Assembly (NCBI GenBank): GCA_009787115.1
Contig: WRGQ01000168.1
Location: 1 to 36,753, forward strand
Source of the DNA: Bacteroidota bacterium
GTDB taxonomy: Bacteria; Bacteroidota; Bacteroidia; Bacteroidales; WCHB1-69
Length of the DNA: 36,753 nt
Direction: 5' to 3'
This document shows positions 1 to 33,920 of the stretch, in pieces. How positions within the stretch are numbered: the first letter of the stretch is position 1; the number at the start of each line of letters is the position of its first letter. The notes under the pieces were generated by a model that saw only the letters and a program-made list of their open reading frames with translations, searched no databases and was not told the origin of the DNA. The position numbers and the translations under genes were made by a program.

Positions 1-372
1 GGTACCGATTTCATTGTGAAGATAAAGATAAGCAACACCAACGGCACCACCAAATATGAAAATCTGGCTTTGACCCACATTCTTCCCTCCGGTTGGGAGA
101 TTTTCAACACGCGATTGACAGATGACGCGCAAACTTACCCAAACACAGGCAAAACGCGCGAATATTCGGAAGGAATTACCTATCAAGACATTCGCGACGA
201 CCAAGTGTTGAGTTACTTTGACCTTCCGCCCGGAAGGAGCATCACGATAAGCATACGGGCGCAGGCAGCCTATTTGGGACGCTTTTTTATGCCCGCAATC
301 GCTTGCCAGGCAATGTACGATAATACGGTCTATGCCCGAACGGAAGGTGTTTGGGTGGAGGTGGGGAAGTAG
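1..372 (+). CDS. alpha-2-macroglobulin family protein, C-terminal fragment (5' part outside window)
   Basis: Frame is open from base 1 (GTDFIVKIKISN...). C-terminal motif content (LPSGWEIFNTR, YQDIRDDQVLSYFDLPPG, FFMPAIACQAMYD) resembles the last domain of bacterial A2M-like proteins. Confidence 0.8.
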   Translation, partial: GTDFIVKIKISNTNGTTKYENLALTHILPSGWEIFNTRLTDDAQTYPNTGKTREYSEGITYQDIRDDQVLSYFDLPPGRSITISIRAQAAYLGRFFMPAIACQAMYDNTVYARTEGVWVEVGK

Positions 373-461
373 TGATTAGTCTTATTGGTTAATTTTTCAT
401 AGCACCTCAAAAAAGAATTAACCTATTTTAAACTGCCACAAGAATAATAGAAAAATATAAA

Positions 462-469
462 TACTTTTG
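462..469 (+). promoter_or_regulatory. Bacteroidetes -7 promoter element TACTTTTG upstream of flippase gene
   Basis: Matches TAnnTTTG, 44 bp before the ATG at 513; no convincing -33 element seen. Confidence 0.5.
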
Positions 470-512
470 CACTTTCAAAAAACTGTTTACATATTCAGTC
501 TAAATAACCAGA

Positions 513-1964
513 ATGAGCAAAACCTTAAAAGAAAAAACAGCGCACGGCATTTTCTGGAATTTTCTCGACAAGTTTGGGCAACAAGCGCTAAATATCTTAG
601 TGACAATTGTGCTTATGCGTTTCTTTTTGACTCCTGACGATTACGGTTTGGTAAGTGTGATATTTATTGTGAATGCTTTAGGGTTTGCATTTATTGACAG
701 CGGTTTTTCCAATGCGCTCATTCGCAAAAAAGAGGTTACCCAAACCGATCTATCCTCCGTTTTTTATTTTAATATTGTTATTAGTTTATTGTTTTATCTG
801 CTCATTTTCTGTACAGCGCCTCTTATTGCCCATATTTATCACAAACCTGTTTTAACAGGTTTAGTACGCGTTATGGCACTGAGTCTTCCATTATGTTCAA
901 TGGCTTTAGTACAAACCACATTATTAACAAAATCTATTGATTTTAAACGCTTAGCAAGTACAAATCTGATTGCCATTTTTTGTTCAGGCGCTTTGAGTTT
1001 GTTTTTGGCTTGGAAAGGATATGGAGTTTGGGTATTGGTAATTCAACCGTTCTCAATTACATTAGTGAGAAATATCTGTTTATGGAGTATCAGTTCCTGG
1101 CGCCCAAGTTTAATTTACAGCCGACAAAGTATTCAAAATTTATGGAAATACAGTTCAAAACTGTTGATATCTTCAACCGTCAGTATTATTTGTAAAAATA
1201 TTTATTCATCGCTTATTGCTTTTTTTTACCCGTTTAAAGAAGCGGGATTTTATTTTAATGCCAACAAATATTCCGAAATACCCCATCAAACCATTATCCC
1301 TGCAATACATACAACCGTTTATCCTGCTATGACTAATCTTGGCGACAACCCGGAATCATTAAAAAACGCTTTCAGAAAAATGATACGGGTTGCATCTTTT
1401 ATTTTCTTTCCGGTTATGCTGGGTTTAATAGCTACGGCAGATCCTTTAATGTTAACGGTATTTGGAGTAAAATGGATTCCCATTGTACCTTATTTTAAAG
1501 TATTATGTGTTGGGTATCTATTTATGGGAATCAATTCGCTTTATACGGTTATTCTCTTTCTTAAAGGAAAATCTTCAGCCGTTTTATTTTTTAATCTTCT
1601 GTATAGTATTGCATTACTATTAAGTATTGTTCTCACTGTAAGAATAAGTGTATGGTCAATGGCAATCAGTTGGACTATGGTTGGCGTGATTTATACTATT
1701 GTTTATACTTCTTATGTGAGAAAAATGATTCAATATACAGTTATTGAACAACTCAAAGATATTCTGCCCTATTTTATTTTGGCAACAACAATGGGAATAG
1801 GAATTTACTTGTTTTCTGCTCTTATTCATAATAATTTTATATTGGTGAGTGTGCAAATTATTACCGGGGCTATTTTTTACATAAGCGCCTGTTATTTACT
1901 CGGCTCGAAAGTATTTCGCGAAGCAATTGAAATGATTAAAAACAAAACTGTTAACGTGAAATGA
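513..1964 (+). CDS. polysaccharide flippase / oligosaccharide transporter (Wzx/WzxC-like)
   Basis: 483 aa multi-pass membrane protein starting MSKTLKEKTAHGIFWNFLDKFGQQALNILVTIVLMRFF, typical of the Wzx/MOP lipopolysaccharide flippase family. Confidence 0.88.
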   Translation: MSKTLKEKTAHGIFWNFLDKFGQQALNILVTIVLMRFFLTPDDYGLVSVIFIVNALGFAFIDSGFSNALIRKKEVTQTDLSSVFYFNIVISLLFYLLIFCTAPLIAHIYHKPVLTGLVRVMALSLPLCSMALVQTTLLTKSIDFKRLASTNLIAIFCSGALSLFLAWKGYGVWVLVIQPFSITLVRNICLWSISSWRPSLIYSRQSIQNLWKYSSKLLISSTVSIICKNIYSSLIAFFYPFKEAGFYFNANKYSEIPHQTIIPAIHTTVYPAMTNLGDNPESLKNAFRKMIRVASFIFFPVMLGLIATADPLMLTVFGVKWIPIVPYFKVLCVGYLFMGINSLYTVILFLKGKSSAVLFFNLLYSIALLLSIVLTVRISVWSMAISWTMVGVIYTIVYTSYVRKMIQYTVIEQLKDILPYFILATTMGIGIYLFSALIHNNFILVSVQIITGAIFYISACYLLGSKVFREAIEMIKNKTVNVK

Positions 1965-2845
1965 AAAATTATATAAAACAAACAATTATGAATAAAGAAC
2001 CTCTATTTTCAGTACTTATAGCCAGTTACAATAATGGGCGCTACCTTGCCAAAGCGCTGAACAGCGTGCTGTCGCAAACCTATAAAAATGTAGAAATTAT
2101 TGTGGTTGATGATGGTTCTACCGATCATTCGCTTGAAGTGTTAGCCTCATTTAAAAACAACCCTGCGATAAAAATTGTACTGAATGAAACCAATAAAGGG
2201 TGTGGATATACCAAACGCAGGTGCGCACAACTCGCTACCGGAGAACTTTGCGGCTTTTTAGATCCCGATGATGAATTGATGCCCACTGCCATTGAGACGA
2301 TGGTACAAGCGCATATTCAAAACCCAAACTGTAGTTTAATAGGGTCGCAACACTACATTTGCAACAAAAACTTAAAACCTATGGGCATATCTGAACATAT
2401 TACCATTCCTGAGGGATATTCCTATTTAACATACGGACGTCATATAACTATTGCTTTCGCTACTTTTAAAAAATATTTATACGATAAAACTTCCGGAATT
2501 TCCGAAGAAATAACGCACGCTGTGGATCAGGATTTGTATTTTAAATTAGATGAAGTAGGAGATGTTTTGATACTCAAAAAAGTTTTATCTAAATACAGGC
2601 GTCATGAAGGTGGAATTTCGGTGGGTAAAAAAGGATTTGGAAAAGCCATGTATTGGCATATCATTTTAATACGCGAGGCATACAAACGAAGAGGTATTTC
2701 GGGCGCAGAACAACAAGCGGTAAAATTAATTACACGCCCTTATCATACTTATAAATACCGGTTTGGAAATCTTGTTCTATCTCCTGTAGAATGGTTACTC
2801 CAATGGATGAAAGTTATCCGGTTTTTATTTTTGAAAAAAAAATAA
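1961..2845 (+). CDS. glycosyltransferase family 2
   Basis: FSVLIASYNNGRYLAKALNSVLSQTYKNVEIIVVDDGSTD and LDPDDELM are GT2 hallmarks; 4-bp overlap with the upstream gene. Confidence 0.92.
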   Translation: MKNYIKQTIMNKEPLFSVLIASYNNGRYLAKALNSVLSQTYKNVEIIVVDDGSTDHSLEVLASFKNNPAIKIVLNETNKGCGYTKRRCAQLATGELCGFLDPDDELMPTAIETMVQAHIQNPNCSLIGSQHYICNKNLKPMGISEHITIPEGYSYLTYGRHITIAFATFKKYLYDKTSGISEEITHAVDQDLYFKLDEVGDVLILKKVLSKYRRHEGGISVGKKGFGKAMYWHIILIREAYKRRGISGAEQQAVKLITRPYHTYKYRFGNLVLSPVEWLLQWMKVIRFLFLKKK

Positions 2846-2874
2846 CATAATCTCGCAACATAATATTTTTCACT

Positions 2875-4089
2875 GTGAAAATGGAAAAACTTAATATCCT
2901 TTTTATAACAAGTTCCGATGTTTCTCCCTTAAATGGGGGAATAGACAGGGTAGTAATTCTATTGGCAGAAGAATTAAATAAATTACCACAGTATCAGGTT
3001 TTTTCCGCCTATTTTGAGATAAAACACACATCTGCCAACATTTTTAAAAAGAAAATAAAAGTAGATGAAAAGAATATGCTTTCCGAATTATCCGATTTTA
3101 TAAGAGAAAATGAGATTAACATAATCCTTAATAATGTTTTAGAGCGTAAAAAACTCAAATTTCTTTTACCTGCATTAGAAAAAATATCCAAACAGGAGCA
3201 TACTTGTAAAATTTTATATCACTATCATAATCTACCCGGTTTTGAAAAAGCTTCCATCTATCCCAAAATGTATTGGATGCGTTTAAAGAATGGTCAATAT
3301 AAACTACATTATTTTTATAAATTGATGTTACAACTTATGGCACGTTTGACAAGAAACAAATTATTAATACGCTATTGGGTTAAAAAATATCGTGCTCTTT
3401 ATCAATTTTCCGATAAAATAGTTCTACTGTCTCGTGCTTATATCCCTGTTTTTGCAAATTGCGCTCAAGTTTCTGTTAATGATAAACTTGTAGCCATTAA
3501 CAACCCATTATCCTTTTCTGAGAGTATAAAAATTGATTCTATTTATAGCAAACAAAAAGAAGCGCTTATTGTTTCCCGTTTAGATGAAGAACAAAAACGT
3601 TTATCGCTTGCACTGAAAATTTGGAAAAAAATTGAATCTAATGCTCTTCTGTCGGAATGGAAATTAACAATTGTTGGCGATGGAGAAGATAAACTTTATT
3701 ATCAGAACCTTGTAAAAAAATTAAAATTGCAACGCGTATTTTTTGAAGGCGCTCAGAATCCTGAAATCTATTATAAAAGATCTTCTATTTTCATAATGAC
3801 CTCCGCTTATGAAGGGTGGGGATTAACACTAACCGAAGCACAACAAATGGGCGTTGTGCCTGTTGCTTTCGACACTTTTGGCGCGGTGCACGATATTATT
3901 GAAGATAAATATAATGGACTAATTATCCCCAATAATGATATTGAGAGATATGCAGATAAACTTGCATGGCTGATGCAACACGATGAAGAACGTCAAACGA
4001 TGGCTTGTAATGCCGTTGAAAGTTCCAAAAAATTTCATCCGTCTGAAATTGGGAAACAGTGGGTTAAATTGCTTTTTGCTCCCTCATAA
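2875..4089 (+). CDS. glycosyltransferase family 4
   Basis: GT-B C-terminal motif SAYEGWGLTLTEAQQMGVVPVAFDTFGAVHDIIEDKYNGLIIP. Start could be GTG 2875 or ATG 2881. Confidence 0.88.
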   Translation: MKMEKLNILFITSSDVSPLNGGIDRVVILLAEELNKLPQYQVFSAYFEIKHTSANIFKKKIKVDEKNMLSELSDFIRENEINIILNNVLERKKLKFLLPALEKISKQEHTCKILYHYHNLPGFEKASIYPKMYWMRLKNGQYKLHYFYKLMLQLMARLTRNKLLIRYWVKKYRALYQFSDKIVLLSRAYIPVFANCAQVSVNDKLVAINNPLSFSESIKIDSIYSKQKEALIVSRLDEEQKRLSLALKIWKKIESNALLSEWKLTIVGDGEDKLYYQNLVKKLKLQRVFFEGAQNPEIYYKRSSIFIMTSAYEGWGLTLTEAQQMGVVPVAFDTFGAVHDIIEDKYNGLIIPNNDIERYADKLAWLMQHDEERQTMACNAVESSKKFHPSEIGKQWVKLLFAPS

Positions 4090-4206
4090 TAACAAGTATA
4101 ATGGTCTAACAAATGGGGTGCAGTACACTTGATTTTAAAAAAACAAAAAGCATAATAAACCCAGTGCTTGAAAAAATATTGCCAAAAAAAATCAAATTTT
4201 TGAATT

Positions 4207-5400
4207 ATGAATATACTCTTTGTAACCAATTCTGAGATTGTTGCTACTTGTGACGGAATCCATCGGATAACATCAACACTTTCACAGTATTTTACCATAA
4301 AACATGAATATAAATGTTTCCTTGCATACCTTGCACATAACAAAGCAGAACCAAAAACTGAGTTTGAAGAAAAATTTCAAGTTGACAAGAGTAATATTTA
4401 TGAACAGTTTAGCGATTTTTTGACAAGAAATAAGATTGATATTGTGATTTGTCAGCACGTAGTTGGTACCCGAAAAATATTTGAACAAATGAAACTTGCA
4501 GTAAATAAAACACAAAACTGCAAGTTTGTTTATTGTTTTCATCTTGCACCCGATTATTATTTTGTCCACCCAAATCTCAACGCAGAAATTTTTCGCTTTT
4601 TTGATACATTTAAGAATTTTAGAAAAATCGTGGTTGGTCTATTACCAAAATTATTGTATAACATTTTAGTCAGTAAAGAAATACAAAAAGAACTTGCAAT
4701 TTACAATGATTATTTTGATAAAATAGTTTTATTGTCCAAGCGATATATTCAGGATTATAACAAATTATCAAATATTCCTGCATGGAAACAGAAAGATGTA
4801 GTTGCCATACCTAATATTCTGACTTTTAATGAAAAAATTTCCGAAAAGGATATTGAAAGTAAAGAAAATATAGTTCTAATTGTAGCCCGTTTGTCTGAAC
4901 GGCTAAAACGAATTTCCCAAAGTCTAAAGATTTGGAAAAAAGTGCAACAAAGAACTGACATAAAAGATTGGCGACTTATTATTCTCGGTATTGGCGATGA
5001 CGAAAAGTATTATAAAAAACTTGTGAAAAAACTTGATATAAAAAAGGTTTATTTTGAAGGCAGACAAAATCCGATTGAGTATTACAAAAAAGCATCTGTT
5101 TATATGATGACATCTGCTTCAGAAGGTTGGGGATTAACCCTAACCGAAGCACAACAGATGGGCGTTGTGCCGATTGTTTTCGATAGTTTTGGCGCGGTGC
5201 ACGATATTATTGAAGATAAGTATAATGGACTAATTATCCCCAATAATGATATTGAGAGATATGCAGATAAACTTGCATGGCTGATGCAACACGATGAAGA
5301 ATGTCAAACGATGGCTTGTAATGCCGTTGAAAGTTCCAAAAAATTTCATCTGTCTGAAATTGGGAAACAGTGGGTTAAATTGCTTGAAGATACTCTATGA
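4207..5400 (+). CDS. glycosyltransferase family 4 (paralogue of the preceding gene)
   Basis: Same GT4 motif SASEGWGLTLTEAQQMGVVPIVFDSFGAVHDIIEDKYNG; co-linear similarity with the upstream gene. Confidence 0.88.
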   Translation: MNILFVTNSEIVATCDGIHRITSTLSQYFTIKHEYKCFLAYLAHNKAEPKTEFEEKFQVDKSNIYEQFSDFLTRNKIDIVICQHVVGTRKIFEQMKLAVNKTQNCKFVYCFHLAPDYYFVHPNLNAEIFRFFDTFKNFRKIVVGLLPKLLYNILVSKEIQKELAIYNDYFDKIVLLSKRYIQDYNKLSNIPAWKQKDVVAIPNILTFNEKISEKDIESKENIVLIVARLSERLKRISQSLKIWKKVQQRTDIKDWRLIILGIGDDEKYYKKLVKKLDIKKVYFEGRQNPIEYYKKASVYMMTSASEGWGLTLTEAQQMGVVPIVFDSFGAVHDIIEDKYNGLIIPNNDIERYADKLAWLMQHDEECQTMACNAVESSKKFHLSEIGKQWVKLLEDTL

Positions 5401-6125
5401 AACAACTTCTGTACGTATTAATCATAGTATTATCTGTAAATCACGCATTTGCAAATGATAATGTTCGCAGGGACACTGTGCCTTTTTCCTATTACATTGT
5501 ACCTTCGGCTTTGATAACTTATGGCATAATAACAAGATTCTCATGTGATTTGCAGAATTTTGACCATAAGATTGACGATAAAGTTCAACAAAATATTCAC
5601 CGCCGATATAAATTTGATGACTATATTCAATTTGTGCCATACGTTGGCATTTACGGATTGGATTTGTGCGGTGTAAAGGCTAAACATAATTTTTTAGACA
5701 GAACGCTTGTACTTGGTACTTCATTGATTTTTGCAACTGCTACCGTTCAAGGTACAAAATATCTTACTCACATAGAACGTCCTGACGGCTCAAATAAACA
5801 TTCTTTTCCGTCAGGTCATACGAGTACGGCTTTTTTGGGTGCGCATATTTTGTTTAGAGAATATAAAGATGTGTCGCCCTGGATTGGCGTAGCAGGTTAC
5901 GGCTTTGCCTTTACAACTGCTTCAATGCGTATCATCAACCGCAAACACTGGTTTAGCGATGTGGTTACAGGGGCAGGCATTGGTATTCTTTGTGCGGAAT
6001 TAGGGTATTTGATGTTGCCTGTCTGGCATAAACTTTTTAAAATAAAACAAAAAGATAAAGGTCTGGCAATTATGCCAATAATCACTGTAGATAATTTTGG
6101 AATAGGCGGAATAATGATTTTCTAA
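5397..6125 (+). CDS. PAP2 superfamily phosphatase, secreted/membrane
   Basis: Signal peptide, KYLTHIERP, FPSGHTS and NRKHWFSDVVTG correspond to PAP2 motifs C1-C3; overlaps the upstream stop by 4 bp. Confidence 0.87.
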   Translation: MKQLLYVLIIVLSVNHAFANDNVRRDTVPFSYYIVPSALITYGIITRFSCDLQNFDHKIDDKVQQNIHRRYKFDDYIQFVPYVGIYGLDLCGVKAKHNFLDRTLVLGTSLIFATATVQGTKYLTHIERPDGSNKHSFPSGHTSTAFLGAHILFREYKDVSPWIGVAGYGFAFTTASMRIINRKHWFSDVVTGAGIGILCAELGYLMLPVWHKLFKIKQKDKGLAIMPIITVDNFGIGGIMIF

Positions 6126-6141
6126 ATAGAAAAAAGTTTTC

Positions 6142-8604
6142 TTATTTTGCTATTATTGTTTTCATTTTTTTGTTTCTCACAAAGCCATAAGCAATTCCCC
6201 CAACAATCGTTCCATACATAATAATGATACACAGTATTGAAACCGGCTCCGCTTTTTTCAGGGTGTCGGGTTTAAATTCAAAACGGATATGATGTTCGCC
6301 GGCGGGCACGTTCAATGCTCTTAATGTGTAGTTTACCCTGAAATGTCCGGTCGGTTGTCCGTCAATAAAGGCATGCCAGCCGTAGGGATAGTAGATTTCG
6401 GAAAAGACTACGATGCCGTCTTTATCGGAGTGCGTTTGGTATTCAAGTGCATTCGGTGCGTATGAAAGAAATGTTATCTGCGCTGTTGTATCTTTTCCGG
6501 CAACAAAATCTTTCACAAAATCGGCAAATTTGACATCTAAAACAGCCGTTGTTTTTAAGTCAATCTCATTTAATGCGTCGCATTCTTCGTTTGGCGTGTT
6601 TACAACGAGCACAGAGTCAATGTACCACGCATTACCCATAGCAAGCGGATTGTATTGTGGTACCGGATTTTTATTGGCATCGGGCACAATGAAATATTTC
6701 GTATTGAGCATATTGATTACACTCATATTCATTTTAGTAGAAATATGTTCGGAAATTAAATCCTGATACCGGCGCAATTTTGCAGCGTGATATCCGCCGA
6801 TATGTTTCAAATAGTAAGAAGTTCTAGATTCATTAAACGTGTTGGTTGTGAGGTTTAAAACTCTGAAATGCGGATCCGGATCCTGCAAAATACGTTCCTC
6901 ATAAGGTTGTTTTTTAAAGTAACTGTTCTCCGATTTTGGAGAAACGAAGTTATTATCATTAAAAAAACGCTTACTTACCGTCCACATATCTGCCAAGATT
7001 AAAATACCCAAAATGCCAATAAAATAAGGGAGTTTCAGTTTTTCTTTTACAAACAGCCACAATGTTCCGGCACCCAACAAAATAAAGGCAAACGAACGGA
7101 AAGCATCAGTTCGCAGCATAGAGGCTCTTTCTGCAACAATAGCATTGCATAGCCATTCCGGAAGTTGAGCAAAAACAGATTCGTCATTCGGAGAAGTGAA
7201 ATCGTAGAACATACCTCCGAACAGAGCAATTATGAGACAAATTCCTGCAGTAATTCCGGATGAAATATAGATATTTTTAATTAATTTCTCTTTTGTAATT
7301 TGTTTCTCCATAATTGCTTTAATCGCCAGAAAACCCAGCAGCGGCATCGTTACTTCGGCAACTACCAAAATAGAAGAGACCGTCCTGAACTTGTTATACA
7401 TCGGAAAATAGTTGAAAAAGAGTTCGGTAAGCGGCATAAAGTTTTTCCCCCACGAAAGCAGAATAGAGAAAAGAGTTGCCACCAGCAAAGCCCATTTGTA
7501 GGGACCTTTCACGATACATAATCCTAACACAAACAGAAAACAGATGATTGCGCCGATATAAACGGGACCGGATGTAAAAGGTTGGTTTCCCCAATAAACA
7601 GGTACATTCTTACAAAAATCTGTCGAATTTTTTTTAGAGACACCGTTTTTCATTAATTCATCATAAACGATAGAGTTTGTGCCCACATCATAATTGGAGG
7701 AAGCGCCCATAAAGTTGGGAATGAGCAGTGTCATTGTTTCATCAATACCATAACTCCATTGGGTAGCATAATCCAAATCTAACCCTTTTGTTTTATTTTG
7801 ATTGTCAGTGTCTTTCACCAACTCGGAGTGTCCGCCCCGCATGGTTTCTTTTGCATATTCCTGATTTAATTTTATGGTCGTATAACGCGTTCCCAAACCA
7901 ATGCCAACGGCAGCGCCGAAAAGGAGTGTTGCAATCAAAAAATCTTTTATTCTCTTCTCTTTAATATGAATAAAGAGTTCAGCTATGAGCAAGCACCCAA
8001 TAAGCATAAAATAATAGTATGCCATTTGGGGGTGTTTGGTAATTCCCATTATACAGCCAATCATTGTAAATACTGCACCCCATATATGGTTTTTATTAAA
8101 AATAAAGAAGAACCCTGCAATAACCGGTGCCATTTGTGCAATGGCAATCGCTTTGTTCACGTGTCCGGCTTCAATAATAATAAAGAAATAGGAAGAGAGT
8201 GTAATCGCCATAGCGCCCACAATACTAAGCCAGGTGTTCACTTTGAATGCTTTGAGTAATATAAAGAAACCGAGCAGATACCAAATCAGCAGTTTCAGAG
8301 TATCTTTAAATCCAAGTGAAACAACCATACTCACAGGTTTCAGATAGGTTTCGGATTGAATTTTTCCACCCCCAGTCTGGTAAGTGGGCATTCCCGAAAA
8401 CATAGAACCTGACCAAAAAGTATCATCTCCTGTCTTTTCATTATACACTTTTGCTTCCTGATACATTCCTTTCCAACTTAGAATATCGCCGCTCTGCACA
8501 ACCTTCCCCTCTAAAATAGGAGAACAGTAAATAATAGTAAACAGAATGAAAATCACTATGGCTATTAAGTAAGGAAGCCATTTTCTTAATAAATCTTTAT
8601 TCAT
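6142..8604 (-). CDS. YfhO-family large membrane protein
   Basis: 820 aa with many TM segments. N-terminal YCSPILEGKVVQSGDILSWKGMYQEA and C-terminal YYPYGWHAFIDGQPTGHFRVNYTLRALNVPAGEHHIRFEFKP are typical of YfhO proteins. Confidence 0.85.
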   Translation of the reverse strand: MNKDLLRKWLPYLIAIVIFILFTIIYCSPILEGKVVQSGDILSWKGMYQEAKVYNEKTGDDTFWSGSMFSGMPTYQTGGGKIQSETYLKPVSMVVSLGFKDTLKLLIWYLLGFFILLKAFKVNTWLSIVGAMAITLSSYFFIIIEAGHVNKAIAIAQMAPVIAGFFFIFNKNHIWGAVFTMIGCIMGITKHPQMAYYYFMLIGCLLIAELFIHIKEKRIKDFLIATLLFGAAVGIGLGTRYTTIKLNQEYAKETMRGGHSELVKDTDNQNKTKGLDLDYATQWSYGIDETMTLLIPNFMGASSNYDVGTNSIVYDELMKNGVSKKNSTDFCKNVPVYWGNQPFTSGPVYIGAIICFLFVLGLCIVKGPYKWALLVATLFSILLSWGKNFMPLTELFFNYFPMYNKFRTVSSILVVAEVTMPLLGFLAIKAIMEKQITKEKLIKNIYISSGITAGICLIIALFGGMFYDFTSPNDESVFAQLPEWLCNAIVAERASMLRTDAFRSFAFILLGAGTLWLFVKEKLKLPYFIGILGILILADMWTVSKRFFNDNNFVSPKSENSYFKKQPYEERILQDPDPHFRVLNLTTNTFNESRTSYYLKHIGGYHAAKLRRYQDLISEHISTKMNMSVINMLNTKYFIVPDANKNPVPQYNPLAMGNAWYIDSVLVVNTPNEECDALNEIDLKTTAVLDVKFADFVKDFVAGKDTTAQITFLSYAPNALEYQTHSDKDGIVVFSEIYYPYGWHAFIDGQPTGHFRVNYTLRALNVPAGEHHIRFEFKPDTLKKAEPVSILCIIIMYGTIVGGIAYGFVRNKKMKTIIAK

Positions 8605-8629
8605 AAACTAATTTTAAAATTTGGAAGTG

Positions 8630-8637
8630 CAAAAATA
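8630..8637 (-). promoter_or_regulatory. -7 promoter element TATTTTTG for YfhO-family gene
   Basis: Minus-strand TAnnTTTG 26 bp upstream of the start at 8604, in the divergent YfhO/rfbF intergenic region. Confidence 0.5.
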
Positions 8638-8706
8638 AACATTATTTAAAAGCAATTTAGAAAAACTTAAAAAGGGATGTAAAGGAGATTTATGATTAAA
8701 AACTCC

Positions 8707-8714
8707 TATCTTTG
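8707..8714 (+). promoter_or_regulatory. -7 promoter element TATCTTTG for rfbF operon
   Basis: TAnnTTTG match 20 bp before the ATG at 8734. Confidence 0.55.
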
Positions 8715-8733
8715 CACGTCAAAATAAAATTGT

Positions 8734-9507
8734 ATGAAAGCAGTGATTTTAGCCGGCGGTTTAGGCACCCGAATGAGTGAAACAACCGCCACGATACCCA
8801 AACCTATGGTGGAAATCGGCGGAAAACCTATCTTATGGCACATCATGAAAATTTATAGTATGTATGGTGTCAATGAATTTATTATCTGCTGCGGTTATAA
8901 GCAATACATGATTAAAGAGTATTTTGCCAATTATTTTCGTTATAATTGCGATATGACAGTAAATCTGACGGACAATAGCGTGCAAATTCTGAATAATCGC
9001 TCCGAAGATTGGAGAGTTACCATGATAGATACGGGATTAAATACCATGACAGGTGGGCGTATCAAACGCATACAACAATATATTGGAAATGAAACATTTT
9101 TGCTTACTTACGGCGATGGCGTAGCAGATGTCAACATTCATAAAACAATTGAAAAACATAAAAATTCAGGGAAAATATTAACCATGATGGCTTATCAACA
9201 CACCATTCGATTGGGCGTACTGAATATTGACAAACAGGATCTCGTTGAATCTTTTACCGAAAAACCTGCCGAAAGTGGCTCATGGATCAATGCCGGCTTT
9301 TTTGTTTGCGAACCTCAACTGTTCGATTATTTGGAAGGGGATCACGAAATGTTGGAGTGCGAACCTATGGAACGCCTAATGAAACAAAACCAAATCCATG
9401 CCTACAAGCATTATGGCTTTTGGAAACCAATGGATACACTGCGCGATAACACTGAACTTAATGAATTGTGGTATCAGGAGAAGGCCCCTTGGAAAATTTG
9501 GAAATAA
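8734..9507 (+). CDS. rfbF: glucose-1-phosphate cytidylyltransferase
   Basis: MKAVILAGGLGTRMSETTATIPKPMVEIGGKPILWHIMKIYSMYGVNEFIICCGYKQ is characteristic; followed directly by rfbG. Confidence 0.95.
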   Translation: MKAVILAGGLGTRMSETTATIPKPMVEIGGKPILWHIMKIYSMYGVNEFIICCGYKQYMIKEYFANYFRYNCDMTVNLTDNSVQILNNRSEDWRVTMIDTGLNTMTGGRIKRIQQYIGNETFLLTYGDGVADVNIHKTIEKHKNSGKILTMMAYQHTIRLGVLNIDKQDLVESFTEKPAESGSWINAGFFVCEPQLFDYLEGDHEMLECEPMERLMKQNQIHAYKHYGFWKPMDTLRDNTELNELWYQEKAPWKIWK

Positions 9508-9522
9508 TTTGTACATATTTAT

Positions 9523-10599
9523 ATGAATAATATTGATATATTTGATCATTTTTATAAAGGTAAAAAAGTATTCATAACCGGACATACAGGATTTAAAGGT
9601 TCATGGTTATCGCTTTGGCTTCATGAGTTAGGCGCTGAAGTAACCGGATTTGCTTTAGCCCCATACACTGTTAAAGATAATTTTGTTTTGTCGGAACTCT
9701 CTTCAAAGATAAATGATATTAGAGGGGATATTCGAAATGCTGAGTTTTTAGATGAAAAAATACAACAAGTTCAACCTGATATTATTTTTCACTTGGCGGC
9801 TCAACCTTTAGTGCGCTTGTCGTACCAACTGCCTGTGGAGACTTATCAAACCAATCTCATGGGGACTCTTCATGTTATGGAATCTTTTAGACGTTGTGCT
9901 TCTGCAAAAGTGGCAGTGATGATTACAACCGATAAATGTTATGAAAATAAAGAACAGATGATTGCCTATAGTGAGAATGAACCTATGGGAGGCTACGATC
10001 CGTACTCTTCTTCTAAAGGCGCTGCCGAATTAGCCATTGCATCATGGCGCAATTCCTTCATAAATCCAAATAATTATATTAATCACGGGAAAACTATTGC
10101 CAGCGCACGCGCCGGAAATGTAATCGGTGGCGGTGACTGGACACCCGACAGGATTATCCCCGATTGTATTCGTGCTTTAGAAGCCCATGAAGATATTTGT
10201 ATAAGAAACCCTAAAGCGATACGTCCGTGGCAGCACGTTTTAGAGCCCCTGAGCGGTTATCTGTTGCTGGCAAGTAAAATGTGGCAAGATCCCACCGGCT
10301 ATTGCGAAGGATGGAACTTCGGACCCGATATAGACGCCGTCGAAAATGTTTGGTCAGTGGCATCCAAAGTGATACAATGCTATGGAAAAGGAACATTGAA
10401 AGAAATGTCGGATCCGAAAGCACCCCACGAAGCCAATCTCCTGATGCTTGATATTCATAAAGCAAAATCCAAACTAAATTGGCACCCCAAACTGAATATT
10501 GATAAAACTATTGAGATGACCATTGACTGGTATCGGAATTACCAAAGTCAAAATGTTTACAAGTTGTGTCTGCAACAAATTCAACAATATTGCTTATGA
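9523..10599 (+). CDS. rfbG: CDP-glucose 4,6-dehydratase
   Basis: KKVFITGHTGFKGSWLSLWLHELGAEVTGFAL (Rossmann) and YDPYSSSKGAAELAIASWR (YxxxK); adjacent to rfbF. Confidence 0.95.
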   Translation: MNNIDIFDHFYKGKKVFITGHTGFKGSWLSLWLHELGAEVTGFALAPYTVKDNFVLSELSSKINDIRGDIRNAEFLDEKIQQVQPDIIFHLAAQPLVRLSYQLPVETYQTNLMGTLHVMESFRRCASAKVAVMITTDKCYENKEQMIAYSENEPMGGYDPYSSSKGAAELAIASWRNSFINPNNYINHGKTIASARAGNVIGGGDWTPDRIIPDCIRALEAHEDICIRNPKAIRPWQHVLEPLSGYLLLASKMWQDPTGYCEGWNFGPDIDAVENVWSVASKVIQCYGKGTLKEMSDPKAPHEANLLMLDIHKAKSKLNWHPKLNIDKTIEMTIDWYRNYQSQNVYKLCLQQIQQYCL

Positions 10600-30106: not shown

Positions 30107-30856
30107 ATGCCCCCCGTTATCAAAACAGAATCCCTCACCAAGCGTTTCGGCAATTTTACCGCCGTGGATAACATTTCGTTTGAGGTAGAGAAAGGAGAGA
30201 TTTTTGGATTTCTGGGAGCGAACGGCGCGGGGAAAACTACTGCCATGAAAATGTTGATTGGCATTAGCAAACCCACCTCCGGAAGAGGATGGGTGGCAGG
30301 ATATGATATCAAGACCCAAGCCGAACAGATAAAAAAGAGCATTGGCTATATGAGTCAAAAGTTTTCTTTATACGACGATTTGAAAGTGTGGGAAAACATT
30401 CGGCTCTACGCCGGTATTTACGGTATAAAAGAGAAAGAGATAGCCGAAAAAACAGAAATCGTGTTGCAAAAATTAGGTTTTGAGAATGAGCGTAATACAT
30501 TAGTAAAATCGCTGCCATTGGGATGGAAACAACGGTTAGCCTTTTCCGTAGCCATTTTCCACGAACCGCAAATTGTGTTTTTAGATGAACCCACCGGCGG
30601 CGTTGACCCTGCTATGCGCCGCACATTTTGGGAGATGATTTATGAAGCCTCCGCACGAGGTATCACCATATTTGTTACTACCCATTATATGGATGAAGCC
30701 GAATACTGCAACCGCGTCTCTATTATGGTGGACGGCAGAATTGATGCGTTGGATTCTCCCAAAAATTTAAAACAGCATTTTAAGGTGAACAGTATGAATG
30801 AGGTGTTTCATAAACTTGCGCGAGAGGCAAAACGTGGAGATACTCGTGCTTTTTAG
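30107..30856 (+). CDS. ABC transporter ATP-binding protein (ABC-2 export type)
   Basis: Walker A GANGAGKTTAMKM, VKSLPLGWKQRLAFSVAIFHEPQIVFLDEPTGGVDPAMRR (Walker B). Confidence 0.92.
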   Translation: MPPVIKTESLTKRFGNFTAVDNISFEVEKGEIFGFLGANGAGKTTAMKMLIGISKPTSGRGWVAGYDIKTQAEQIKKSIGYMSQKFSLYDDLKVWENIRLYAGIYGIKEKEIAEKTEIVLQKLGFENERNTLVKSLPLGWKQRLAFSVAIFHEPQIVFLDEPTGGVDPAMRRTFWEMIYEASARGITIFVTTHYMDEAEYCNRVSIMVDGRIDALDSPKNLKQHFKVNSMNEVFHKLAREAKRGDTRAF

Positions 30857-30862
30857 GGAAAG

Positions 30863-30900
30863 GATAGTTATCTTTTTGGGAAGTGTTAACTATCTTTTTT
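30863..30900 (+). terminator. possible AT-rich hairpin terminator after ABC ATPase
   Basis: GATAGTTA ... TAACTATC (8-bp perfect arms, 16-nt loop) followed by TTTTTT. Confidence 0.5.
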
Positions 30901-31106
30901 GCAGGCATAGCCTACTTGTGGCTACTGAACATAATCGCAACACCTCTCACCGTACACCACCTGCCGACATTGCCGCCCGCAAACGCTTTCTGTTTCGTGA
31001 TACCGTTGTTGCAGGTTTTCGGTTGCCGTCGCGCAATAGTAAACCCCGTTTTCTTCGTACTCGTAACCGGATATAACCGGTTTTTGTACTTCAAAAATAA
31101 AATTTC

Positions 31107-31129
31107 TTATTACAGCATAACTGTAATAA
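31107..31129. other. perfect 9-bp inverted repeat with 5-nt loop in noncoding DNA
   Basis: TTATTACAG CATAA CTGTAATAA. Confidence 0.7.
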
Positions 31130-31211
31130 TCAAGGTTTAAAGCAGGAAGGGTAGGGGGGGTGTCATGAGTTTTGCTTCCTGTTCTTGAACAGTAAAATTA
31201 AAGTTATTTTT

Positions 31212-31427
31212 TTATTGGTCACACTTCCATTCTATGATTTTGCACGTTTCTTTTGAAATCTTAATATATCCACCACTACCACCCATTCTCAAGATACCGT
31301 CATTTATATAGCGATAGTCAACCAAAATAAAAGTTTCTTCTTCGGTAATTGTTCTTGTAAGGCGTGTTAGATTTTTGTATACTCTTTTCATAATACACTT
31401 AATATTTTTTGTTATTATCCGCCCCAT
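31212..31427 (-). CDS. small protein, likely C-terminal remnant of an immunity-type protein
   Basis: C-terminus TFILVDYRYINDGILRMGGSGGYIKISKETCKIIEWKCDQ resembles the end of NTF2-fold immunity proteins; too short for a full domain. Assignment is tentative. Confidence 0.45.
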   Translation of the reverse strand: MGRIITKNIKCIMKRVYKNLTRLTRTITEEETFILVDYRYINDGILRMGGSGGYIKISKETCKIIEWKCDQ

Positions 31428-31467
31428 AAATTAAAATTTTGTATTAGTCGTTGATAATTGCCTTTTT

Positions 31468-31788
31468 TCAATATTTGTTGCTATTCCTTATTTTTAAATC
31501 TGTTAGTTTAGTTAAAAAATCACAGCATTGATAATATTTATTTTTCTTACTTGGTGACCACCTGTCAACTACATGATATTGAAAATCATTTTTCCCTTCT
31601 AAAATCCATTGAGCGCCATCAAAACCCATAACTCTTTTATTGGTTTCCATATTCCAAAAATCAATTTGATTTAGCAAATTCTTAAATTCAATCCAAGAAT
31701 TTTCGTCAAGTTCTTTTTGTTTCACTATCATAATCCATTTTTCCGGATTATGCCATACATCATCACAATATTTCCAACCATAATATTT
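31468..31788 (-). pseudogene. C-terminal fragment of an immunity-like or unknown protein
   Basis: Reading frame is open upstream of the ORF-track ATG (KYYGWKYCDDVWHNPEKWIMIVKQKELDENSW...GFDGAQWILEGKNDFQYHVVDRWSP...CCDFLTKLTDL) back to the stop of the preceding ORF, with no start codon for that extra part. Confidence 0.5.
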
Positions 31789-32034
31789 TCAACATAGCAT
31801 ATATTTACAATCTTGTTTTTCTATTCGTATAATAATAGGATGATCGCGACTACGCAACCATGTAAATCTATAAATTTCATTTAAGTCATCCGGGCTATGC
31901 CATTCTATTGGTCCAGGCTGACGTGTATGGGTATGGAATGCGGTTACATCGCCGTCAGGTTTTTGTGACATACCTACTTTTCCATTTCTACCTCCAACTG
32001 ACAAACCTACTAAATTCGGAAATGTTTTTTTCAT
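31789..32034 (-). CDS. small JAMM/JAB-motif protein (possible polymorphic-toxin C-terminal module)
   Basis: MKKTFPNLVGLSVGGRNGKVGMSQKPDGDVTAFHTHTRQPGPIEWHSPDDLNEIYRF contains HxHx10SxxD, the JAMM metal-binding motif. The ORF-track start is TTG 32040; ATG 32034 also exists. Confidence 0.6.
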   Translation of the reverse strand: MKKTFPNLVGLSVGGRNGKVGMSQKPDGDVTAFHTHTRQPGPIEWHSPDDLNEIYRFTWLRSRDHPIIIRIEKQDCKYMLC

Positions 32035-32171
32035 ACGCAATAATTTTAGTTAATAAATCAGGGGTGAAAATAGAAAAATATTAATCAAAAACAAAGTACG
32101 TTTGTTTTATTAATTATACGAAAAACACTATTCCCGCGTTTCTTCCTTGGTTTTTTAAAATTTTATATTGT

Positions 32172-33920
32172 ATGAAAAAAGTTAATCTGTTTGTATTTTT
32201 CTTCCTGACTGTTATTGTTTCATTTTCACAAAACCCAACTTATCAAGTGAATAACCAAAAAATGAATCAATTGCTAAAAAATATTAACGATATGTATTTG
32301 GATACAGTGAATTTTGATGTGTTGGTAGAAAAAGGAGTAACAGAGATGCTGAAAGAATTAGATCCCCACTCTGCATATATTTCTAAAAAAGATGTGCAAC
32401 AGGCAAACGAGCCGCTCATCGGCTCTTTCGACGGCATTGGGGTTACTTTTCAAATTATTAAAGATACTATTAACGTGATGGAAGTTATAGTGAACGGTCC
32501 TTCCGAAAAAGTAGGCTTAAAAGCAGGAGATAAGATTGTAAAGGTGGACACTACAACGGCTTGTGGCAAACATGTAAATAACAAATGGGTGGCAGACCAC
32601 CTGCGCGGACCTAAAGGAACTAAAGTTGCTGTTTTTGTAAAAAGAGGAAAAAATCCTGAACTTTTAGAGTTTACTATTACCCGCGACAAGATTCCAATGA
32701 ACAGTATCAACGTGTATTTTATGGCAGATAAAAATACGGGATACATCTGTTTGGAGCGTTTTGCCCAAACCTCCACGCAGGAATTGCGCGATGCCATGAC
32801 CCGCCTCAAAGCACGCGGTATGAAAAACCTTATCCTTGACCTGCGCGGAAATACCGGCGGTTACCTGCAGGCGGCATTTGAAATTTCCAACGAATTTATA
32901 GGAGCGGACAAAATGATTGTTTATACGGATAACTTCCGAAAAACAGGCGAAACATTCAAATCCAACGGAAAAGGCGAGTTTCAAAAAGGTAAGTTAGTGG
33001 TCTTAGTAGATGAAGGCTCAGCCTCTGCCAGCGAGATTGTCTCAGGCGCCGTACAGGATTGGGACCGCGCCCTGATTATGGGACGCAGGACTTTTGGAAA
33101 AGGACTTGTGCAAAAACCCATCTACCTTGCCGATGGCTCGCAAGTACGACTCACCATCTCCAAGTATTATACTCCTTCAGGAAGATGTATCCAACGCCCG
33201 TATGAAGATGGTTTGGACAACTACTTCAACGACCTGAACACCCGCTCAAAACACGGCGAACTATTAACCGCCGACAGTATCAAATTTCCCGATTCCCTCA
33301 AATATCAAACCGCAAAAGGAAGAACTGTTTATGGCGGCGGCGGTATCATGCCCGATATCTTTATCCCGTTGGATACTTCCCGCTACTCTTCACTTTACAA
33401 TGAAATGTACAGAAAAGGGATTATCAGCGGTTTTACATTAGATTATATGGAGCAAAACAGAGAGCAACTCAAAGCTAAATATGCCACAATGGAGGATTTT
33501 AAAAACAACTTTGAAGTCTCTGAACAGTTATTTCAAGAGTTAATGGATTACACCCATAAAGAGGGAGTGAAAGATGTCATTGAGTTTCAGTTTTCCAAAC
33601 GATTGGAAGGGTTTGTAAAAGATAAAGCCTCATCATTGGATTCATTATATAATTCTTTGGAAGATTTGAATACAAATGAACAGTTTAAAGAGATGCTCAC
33701 TAAATACATTACAGAATCTTTTAACGAGTCAATGCGGTTGCGCAATTTGAATAAAGCCAATGAGTTTATTAAAGATGCTTTGAAATATGAAATAGCAAGG
33801 AATCTGTTCAGTTACGGCGAAGCACGCCAAATCTTTTTAATGAAAGATGATGGTTTTCTAAAAGCGTTGGAAGTGATTAGCAACGATAAGATTTTTAAGA
33901 AATTTAATGTAGAGCAGTAA
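32172..33920 (+). CDS. S41 family C-terminal processing peptidase (Prc/CtpA), signal peptide and PDZ
   Basis: NLILDLRGNTGGYLQAAFEISNEF, VVLVDEGSASASEIVSGAVQDWDRALIMGRRTFGKGLVQ, PDZ segment FDGIGVTFQIIKDTINVMEVIVNGPSEKVGLKAGDKIV. Confidence 0.95.
   Translation: MKKVNLFVFFFLTVIVSFSQNPTYQVNNQKMNQLLKNINDMYLDTVNFDVLVEKGVTEMLKELDPHSAYISKKDVQQANEPLIGSFDGIGVTFQIIKDTINVMEVIVNGPSEKVGLKAGDKIVKVDTTTACGKHVNNKWVADHLRGPKGTKVAVFVKRGKNPELLEFTITRDKIPMNSINVYFMADKNTGYICLERFAQTSTQELRDAMTRLKARGMKNLILDLRGNTGGYLQAAFEISNEFIGADKMIVYTDNFRKTGETFKSNGKGEFQKGKLVVLVDEGSASASEIVSGAVQDWDRALIMGRRTFGKGLVQKPIYLADGSQVRLTISKYYTPSGRCIQRPYEDGLDNYFNDLNTRSKHGELLTADSIKFPDSLKYQTAKGRTVYGGGGIMPDIFIPLDTSRYSSLYNEMYRKGIISGFTLDYMEQNREQLKAKYATMEDFKNNFEVSEQLFQELMDYTHKEGVKDVIEFQFSKRLEGFVKDKASSLDSLYNSLEDLNTNEQFKEMLTKYITESFNESMRLRNLNKANEFIKDALKYEIARNLFSYGEARQIFLMKDDGFLKALEVISNDKIFKKFNVEQ

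What the first reader, a model, noticed from the sequence alone, without database searches (positions are those of the whole stretch)
31212..32034. Decayed toxin/immunity-like islet with a stand-alone JAMM (HxHx10SxxD) protein
Three consecutive small minus-strand ORFs read as a JAMM-motif module lacking any N-terminal delivery domain, then two immunity-like C-terminal fragments. The first fragment is in frame with, and immediately after, the JAMM ORF stop, and its coding content starts before any start codon (KYYGWKYCDDVWHNPEKW), suggesting a deletion join. Order (toxin tip then immunity) matches orphan polymorphic-toxin cassettes. The JAMM family assignment is firmer than the immunity assignment.
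Basis: partly seen in the sequence, partly recalled or inferred. Interest (0 to 1): 0.65.

Follow-up and report, generated by a model that had tools for sequence, protein, structure and literature searches.

The report
Decayed bacterial toxin–immunity gene remnant
This stretch is the broken remains of a bacterium-versus-bacterium weapon cassette (the tip of a large RHS toxin plus two protective "immunity" genes); it no longer looks functional, but intact relatives in related species point to a poorly described toxin–immunity family.

Summary
The window is a whole contig of a 1.9 Mb Bacteroidia MAG. A ~1.27 kb segment (about 30841–32110), absent between the same two genes in a congener, holds four decayed pieces on the minus strand. 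(1) A 51-residue fragment of an RHS-carried JAMM tip, 31882–32034; the catalytic Glu position reads Ser and the C-terminal half is gone. (2) The C-terminal domain of a lipoprotein family, 31471–31881, which runs across the "JAMM ORF stop". So the deletion join is inside the first ORF (residue ~51/52), and the TGA is an in-frame stop within one immunity-like domain. (3) The C-terminal half of a second lipoprotein family, 31212–31427. (4) The frameshifted leader of an orphan RHS-tip module, about 30916–31166, outside the reported interval. Intact counterparts exist: RHS-JAMM tip plus the third-ORF lipoprotein in a congener, and RHS-JAMM tip plus both lipoprotein families in another Bacteroidia genome. 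Neither Pfam Toxin-JAB1 nor Imm65 matches. The remnant itself is almost certainly dead. It is a new member of a known kind: orphan RHS toxin/immunity modules.

The parts
30841..32110 (.). Inserted/variable segment (~1270 bp) between an ABC-transporter ATPase gene and an S41 peptidase gene
   Evidence: In congener G397 (L084) the same two genes are separated by 75 bp; left homology ends at GGAGA (30840), right homology resumes at TAATTATACG (~32111)
31882..32034 (-). JAMM-type RHS toxin-tip fragment (ORF A residues 1-51), HxHx10SxxD kept, catalytic Glu position is Ser, C-terminal half missing
   Evidence: Profile of three RHS tips made without the window: E 5.4e-5, best of 1044 ORFs; alignment A4 GREVGG vs GLSVGG
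31471..31881 (-). C-terminal domain of an immunity-like secreted/lipoprotein family (ORF A residues 52-81 + ORF B), signal peptide and N-terminus missing
   Evidence: Contiguous alignment across the stop to L003, L002, L004, L012 and others, E 3e-30 to 4e-24; alignment A1; profile E 1.5e-55 with one TGA inside (the window row is part of that profile)
31789..31791 (-). In-frame TGA stop inside the immunity-like domain
   Evidence: Translation; search reports 1 TGA inside the match
31212..31427 (-). C-terminal part of a second lipoprotein immunity-like family (ORF C); lipoprotein signal and first half missing
   Evidence: 35% identity over residues 15-69 to the intact lipoprotein next to the RHS-JAMM gene in G395, E 3.1e-5; alignment A5
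30916..31166 (-). Decayed leader of a further orphan RHS-tip module (LNLDYYSYAVIRNFIFEVQKPVISGYEYEENGVYYCATATEN...), frameshifted after its ATG, no RHS core end or tip left
   Evidence: DNA match 83% over ~118 bp (E 7e-29) to leaders of orphan RHS modules in G395:C8 and 88% to own-genome C152; those modules carry TIGR03696 positions 52-76
31167..31215 (-). Non-coding upstream sequence shared with other orphan-module leaders in this genome
   Evidence: Matches to G000:C170 and C158 (query 251-355 and 230-355)
30107..30856 (+). Flanking ABC-transporter ATPase; its last codons and stop now lie in the inserted DNA
32172..33920 (+). Flanking S41-family C-terminal processing peptidase (host gene, intact)
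   Evidence: family name from the sequence/own knowledge

Best explanation
The islet is a decayed array of orphan RHS toxin-tip/immunity modules inserted between two housekeeping genes. In its ancestral form an RHS protein, or a silent orphan module that could recombine onto one, carried a C-terminal JAMM (JAB-fold) zinc-hydrolase toxin. Two lipoprotein immunity proteins encoded just downstream protected the producer and its kin. In this genome a deletion fused the middle of the JAMM tip to the middle of the first immunity gene. An in-frame stop then broke that immunity domain, the second immunity gene lost its signal peptide and first half, and the leader of a next orphan module was frameshifted and truncated. 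Shown here: the homologies, the order of the pieces, the truncations, the empty site in one congener, and intact counterparts in related genomes. Inferred: that the intact tips are toxic metalloenzymes, that the lipoproteins neutralise them outside the cytoplasm, and that the remnant is non-functional.
For: Congener G395 (L117): RHS-associated core (TIGR03696, E 4e-16) + JAMM tip (GVESAGWI...FHTHPNSSPLYLQSHNPQDV) followed directly by a 111-aa lipoprotein homologous to ORF C. G031 (L048): RHS protein + tip VIHTHAFRSAGYSPEDHI, then the homologue of ORF A-end/ORF B, then two lipoproteins ending GGGAxxTIDKKTCKI. G414 (L134): RHS + tip GREVGGWI...FHTHYINDSERAYLQHSPADL + two lipoproteins related to that of L117. 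The window JAMM fragment is found by a profile of those three tips built without it. One family alignment runs across the TGA. Orphan-module leader on the same strand next door. Empty site in G397. The islet has 31% G+C against 37% for the window and 39-44% for the flanking genes.
Against: The JAMM fragment is only 51 residues, and its similarity to single tips is weak (best single-sequence E 0.002). Immunity function is inferred from position; most of the other ORF B-family homologues lie away from toxins. The empty site is seen in one genome, so insertion versus deletion is not settled. The TGA could be an assembly error in a MAG.
Confidence: 0.85

Rival explanations
1. Only the immunity-like genes are real; the 51 JAMM-like residues are a chance open frame that became joined to a truncated lipoprotein gene.
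For: The motif alone is expected about 0.07 times in a window of this composition; no relatives of the fragment in plasmids, phages or genome contigs and only noise-level hits in 393 genomes of the order.
Against: Profile of independent RHS tips ranks it first of 1044 ORFs at E 5e-5; similarity extends beyond the motif (KKTF~QRSF, GLSVGG~GREVGG, HSPDDL~HSPADL); it sits exactly where intact loci have a JAMM tip, beside the same immunity families.
Confidence: 0.08
2. A functional single fusion protein: JAMM module plus regulatory/immunity domain, made by reading through the TGA.
For: Frame is open on both sides of the TGA and the domain after it is still well conserved.
Against: The catalytic Glu position is Ser, about half of the JAMM tip is missing, the immunity domain lacks its export signal, ORF C is also truncated and the neighbouring leader is frameshifted; no other genome examined has such a fusion.
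Confidence: 0.03
3. An orphan-immunity islet under selection (acquired interbacterial defence), with the toxin part irrelevant.
For: Orphan immunity genes protect Bacteroidales and Serratia against incoming effectors (PMC10470768, PMC10539506); two immunity-like genes are side by side.
Against: Both immunity-like genes lack signal peptide and N-terminal half and one has an internal stop; intact versions are lipoproteins that need export.
Confidence: 0.04

Closest known systems
Orphan rhs-CT/rhsI (and cdiA-CT/cdiI) toxin-immunity modules (Poole et al. 2011, PMC3150448)
   Same: Detached toxin tip without delivery domain or genuine start, followed by immunity gene(s), in tandem with other orphan modules; in-frame stops in retained sequence are reported there too
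   Different: Described in Proteobacteria; here in Bacteroidia, with lipoprotein immunity genes, and all pieces broken
Tox-JAB-1 / Imm65 (Zhang et al. 2012, PMC3482391; Pfam PF15659 / PF15582)
   Same: JAB/JAMM tip (HxH, S, D) on RHS proteins in Bacteroidetes, paired with a lipoprotein immunity gene
   Different: PF15659 finds neither the window fragment nor the RHS tips of G395, G031 or G414:C180 (it does find another RHS gene in G414); PF15582 finds none of the immunity proteins here
Tox-JAB-2 (DUF4329) / Imm-NTF2-2 (PF15631)
   Same: JAB tip on polymorphic toxins with E, H[ST]H, S, D; small immunity protein
   Different: No Pfam hit for the tips or immunity proteins up to E 10 or 1; PF15631 search of the own genome is empty
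DUF6438 (PF20033)
   Same: Faint similarity to the immunity-like domain (E 0.03-0.1, three of eight members)
   Different: Far below the gathering score of 30 bits

Membership tests
Orphan RHS toxin-tip/immunity module | Toxin tip homologous to tips carried on RHS proteins elsewhere | tested here: met
   Profile E 5.4e-5 with three RHS tips; tips are downstream of TIGR03696 cores in L117 and L134
Orphan RHS toxin-tip/immunity module | No delivery/RHS core on the tip ORF | tested here: met
   Stop at about 32050 just upstream of the ORF; no RHS sequence up to the S41 gene
Orphan RHS toxin-tip/immunity module | Immunity gene directly downstream, homologous to the immunity gene of an intact locus | tested here: met
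   ORF B and ORF C homologues lie downstream of RHS-JAMM genes in L048 and L117
Orphan RHS toxin-tip/immunity module | Functional toxin and immunity | not testable with these tools
   Sequence shows truncation of every piece, so function is not expected
JAMM/JAB metalloenzyme | HxH...S/NxxD zinc ligands | tested here: met
   HTH x10 SPDD in the window; spacing x7, x11 (N for S) and x12 in relatives; canonical JAMM spacing is x7 (own knowledge)
JAMM/JAB metalloenzyme | N-terminal catalytic Glu | tested here: not met
   Present in all three RHS tips (GVES, GREV, EREV) but aligned position is Ser in the window (GLSV); a short alignment, so the column is likely rather than certain
JAMM/JAB metalloenzyme | Complete JAB fold | tested here: not met
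   C-terminal half of the tip absent, replaced by the immunity-like domain
Tox-JAB-1 (PF15659) | Match to the Pfam model | tested here: not met
   No match in the window genome or in the tips of G395 and G031 up to E 10
Imm65 (PF15582) | Match to the Pfam model | tested here: not met
   Only an unrelated sub-threshold hit in contig C151
Imm65 (PF15582) | Lipoprotein export signal | tested here: not met
   Window copies have no signal peptide; intact homologues begin with lipobox-like signals such as LSVTSC, FAIGC, LCVSSC, read by eye

The most novel reading that the evidence does not exclude
The intact relatives define an undescribed RHS-borne JAMM toxin family with loose HxHx7-12[S/N]xxD spacing, paired with one or two unrelated lipoprotein immunity families. 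The lipoprotein location would imply that this JAMM toxin acts, or is intercepted, outside the cytoplasm of the target cell.
Probability: 0.35. Interest if true: 0.5.

Novelty: new member of a known kind. Interest (0 to 1): 0.3.

Why it matters
The remnant itself is ordinary genome decay. It does lead to three intact RHS loci whose JAMM tips and lipoprotein immunity genes match no model in Pfam or NCBIfam. What bacterial JAMM/JAB toxins act on is unresolved: they were proposed to be nucleases rather than peptidases (Zhang et al. 2012), and the lipoprotein partners would instead suggest an extracytoplasmic site. The case also shows a stepwise route of decay in Bacteroidia orphan RHS arrays.

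Tried and rejected
Pfam, NCBIfam and PADLOC on the window ORFs: nothing above threshold. PDB by sequence for the read-through protein and for the JAMM-tip profile: nothing meaningful. Genome-contig and viral-contig scans with single proteins or the immunity alignment: no relatives. Phages and plasmids with the tips: none; the second ORF has only faint plasmid hits. JAMM fragment alone in 393 genomes of the order: best E 0.0185, the level expected by chance over that many genomes. Imm-NTF2-2 in the own genome: none. AlphaFold of the immunity-like domain alone (TGA read as a residue): mean pLDDT 47, not usable, so no fold search was run. The S41 neighbour was used for synteny in 40 relatives; ABC–S41 adjacency was recovered only in G397 among the nine neighbourhoods fetched. 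Considered and rejected: a stop placed by a deletion join at the TGA, because one family aligns through it.

Full report
Setting. The window is contig C168 of a 1.89 Mb, 170-contig Bacteroidia MAG. The reported islet lies on the minus strand between an ABC-transporter ATPase gene (30107–30856, +) and an S41 peptidase gene (32172–33920, +).

Observation. The three ORFs, the shared frame of the first two, and the HxHx10SxxD motif are as described. The motif occurs once in six frames where about 0.07 are expected, so it is suggestive only.

Residues 52–188 of the read-through frame (31881–31471) align as one piece to single proteins in other Bacteroidia: L003 38% over 137 residues, E 3e-30; L002 E 3e-27; L012 E 3e-24; L005 E 2e-17 (alignment A1). 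The family consensus YRFTWLRTFHNPIxIRIE…WKxxxGxGGYxPGxL…EWxxF…FWNL…DGAQWILEG…YHxVDRWxP begins inside the 'JAMM ORF' (LNEIYRFTWLRSRDHPIIIRIEK) and continues past the stop. The TGA at 31789–31791 is therefore an in-frame stop inside one domain. The deletion join is at about residue 51/52 (near 31881/31882). In the homologues this domain follows a signal peptide and further N-terminal sequence, which is missing here.

The first 51 residues. No relative was found directly. The route was indirect. The third ORF has an intact homologue in a congener (G395 contig C19, L117; E 3.1e-5), a 111-aa lipoprotein. The gene directly upstream of it ends an RHS protein (TIGR03696, E 4e-16) with a JAMM-like tip, FAWGVESAGWI…NFHTHPNSSPLYLQSHNPQDV. 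Likewise the ORF B homologue in G031 (L048) follows an RHS protein whose tip reads EREVALQI…VIHTHAFRSAGYSPEDHI, and is itself followed by two lipoproteins ending GGGAxxTIDKKTCKI. A third RHS-JAMM locus, found with a tip profile in the same family (G414, L134; E 6e-13), has GREVGGWI…FHTHYINDSERAYLQHSPADL and two lipoproteins related to that of L117. A profile of these three tips, built without the window, ranks the window ORF first of 1044 ORFs (E 5.4e-5; next 0.27). In the alignment the catalytic Glu of the relatives (GREV/GVES) is Ser in the window (GLSV), and everything after HSPDDL is absent.

A fourth piece. DNA from about 30916 to 31215 matches repeats in the same genome and in congeners. 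On the minus strand it reads LNLDYYSYAVIRNFIFEVQKPVISGYEYEENGVYYCATATEN. Matching ORFs in G395:C8 (three in one contig), G395:C38, G397:C259 and own-genome C152 are orphan RHS modules: this leader, the last ~25 positions of the RHS core, then a variable tip with small genes between modules. In the window the leader is frameshifted after its ATG and ends before any core or tip.

Insertion site. In congener G397 the same ABC and S41 genes lie 75 bp apart. Homology to the window stops at 30840 and resumes near 32111, so about 1270 bp are extra in the window. The islet is 31% G+C against 37% for the window. Insertion here or loss in G397 is not resolved with one empty site.

Mechanism. Most likely this was an array of orphan RHS toxin-tip/immunity modules: tip exchange onto RHS carriers, with lipoprotein immunity. 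Zhang et al. 2012 (PMC3482391) describe Tox-JAB-1, a Bacteroidetes-only RHS tip strictly tied to the lipoprotein Imm65, and propose toxin JAB domains to be nucleases. Poole et al. 2011 (PMC3150448) describe orphan rhs-CT/rhsI modules, including ones with in-frame stops. The present pieces work like these but are not members of the named Pfam families: PF15659 and PF15582 do not match them, although PF15659 does find a different RHS gene in G414. All pieces in the window are broken, so present function is unlikely.

Limits. Immunity is inferred from position. The window's immunity-like domain alone gave an unusable model (pLDDT 47). The TGA and frameshift come from a MAG consensus and could be errors, although the missing N-termini and the mid-domain join are not single-base events.

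Noticed in passing
3769-4068 and 5080-5379: 300-bp direct repeat (92% identical) at the 3' ends of two adjacent glycosyltransferase genes, suggesting recent duplication or gene conversion.
   Followed up: no
about 30955-30996: Short dispersed repeat (~40 bp) also present in own-genome C170 and C152 and in two G396 contigs; at least in G396:C228 and own C152 it lies within RHS open frames.
   Followed up: partly
L119 (G395:C8) 5727-10504: Array of three orphan RHS-tip modules sharing one leader, each followed by a small gene, next to phage-integrase-like genes.
   Followed up: partly
L122 (G000:C152) 3-4827: Own genome holds a further RHS tip module with downstream small genes and an RHS gene split into several ORFs, i.e. 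more decay.
   Followed up: partly
L137 (G414:C131) 2-2161: RHS protein with a bona fide Toxin-JAB1 tip (PF15659, E 5e-17) and a neighbouring gene that PF15582 (Imm65) does not match.
   Followed up: partly
L052 (G193:C43) 4974-7627: A distant relative of the immunity-like domain overlaps the end of a 670-aa protein with a DUF4157-like HEADKVMRMP region (family recalled, not tested), possibly another toxin/immunity pair.
   Followed up: partly
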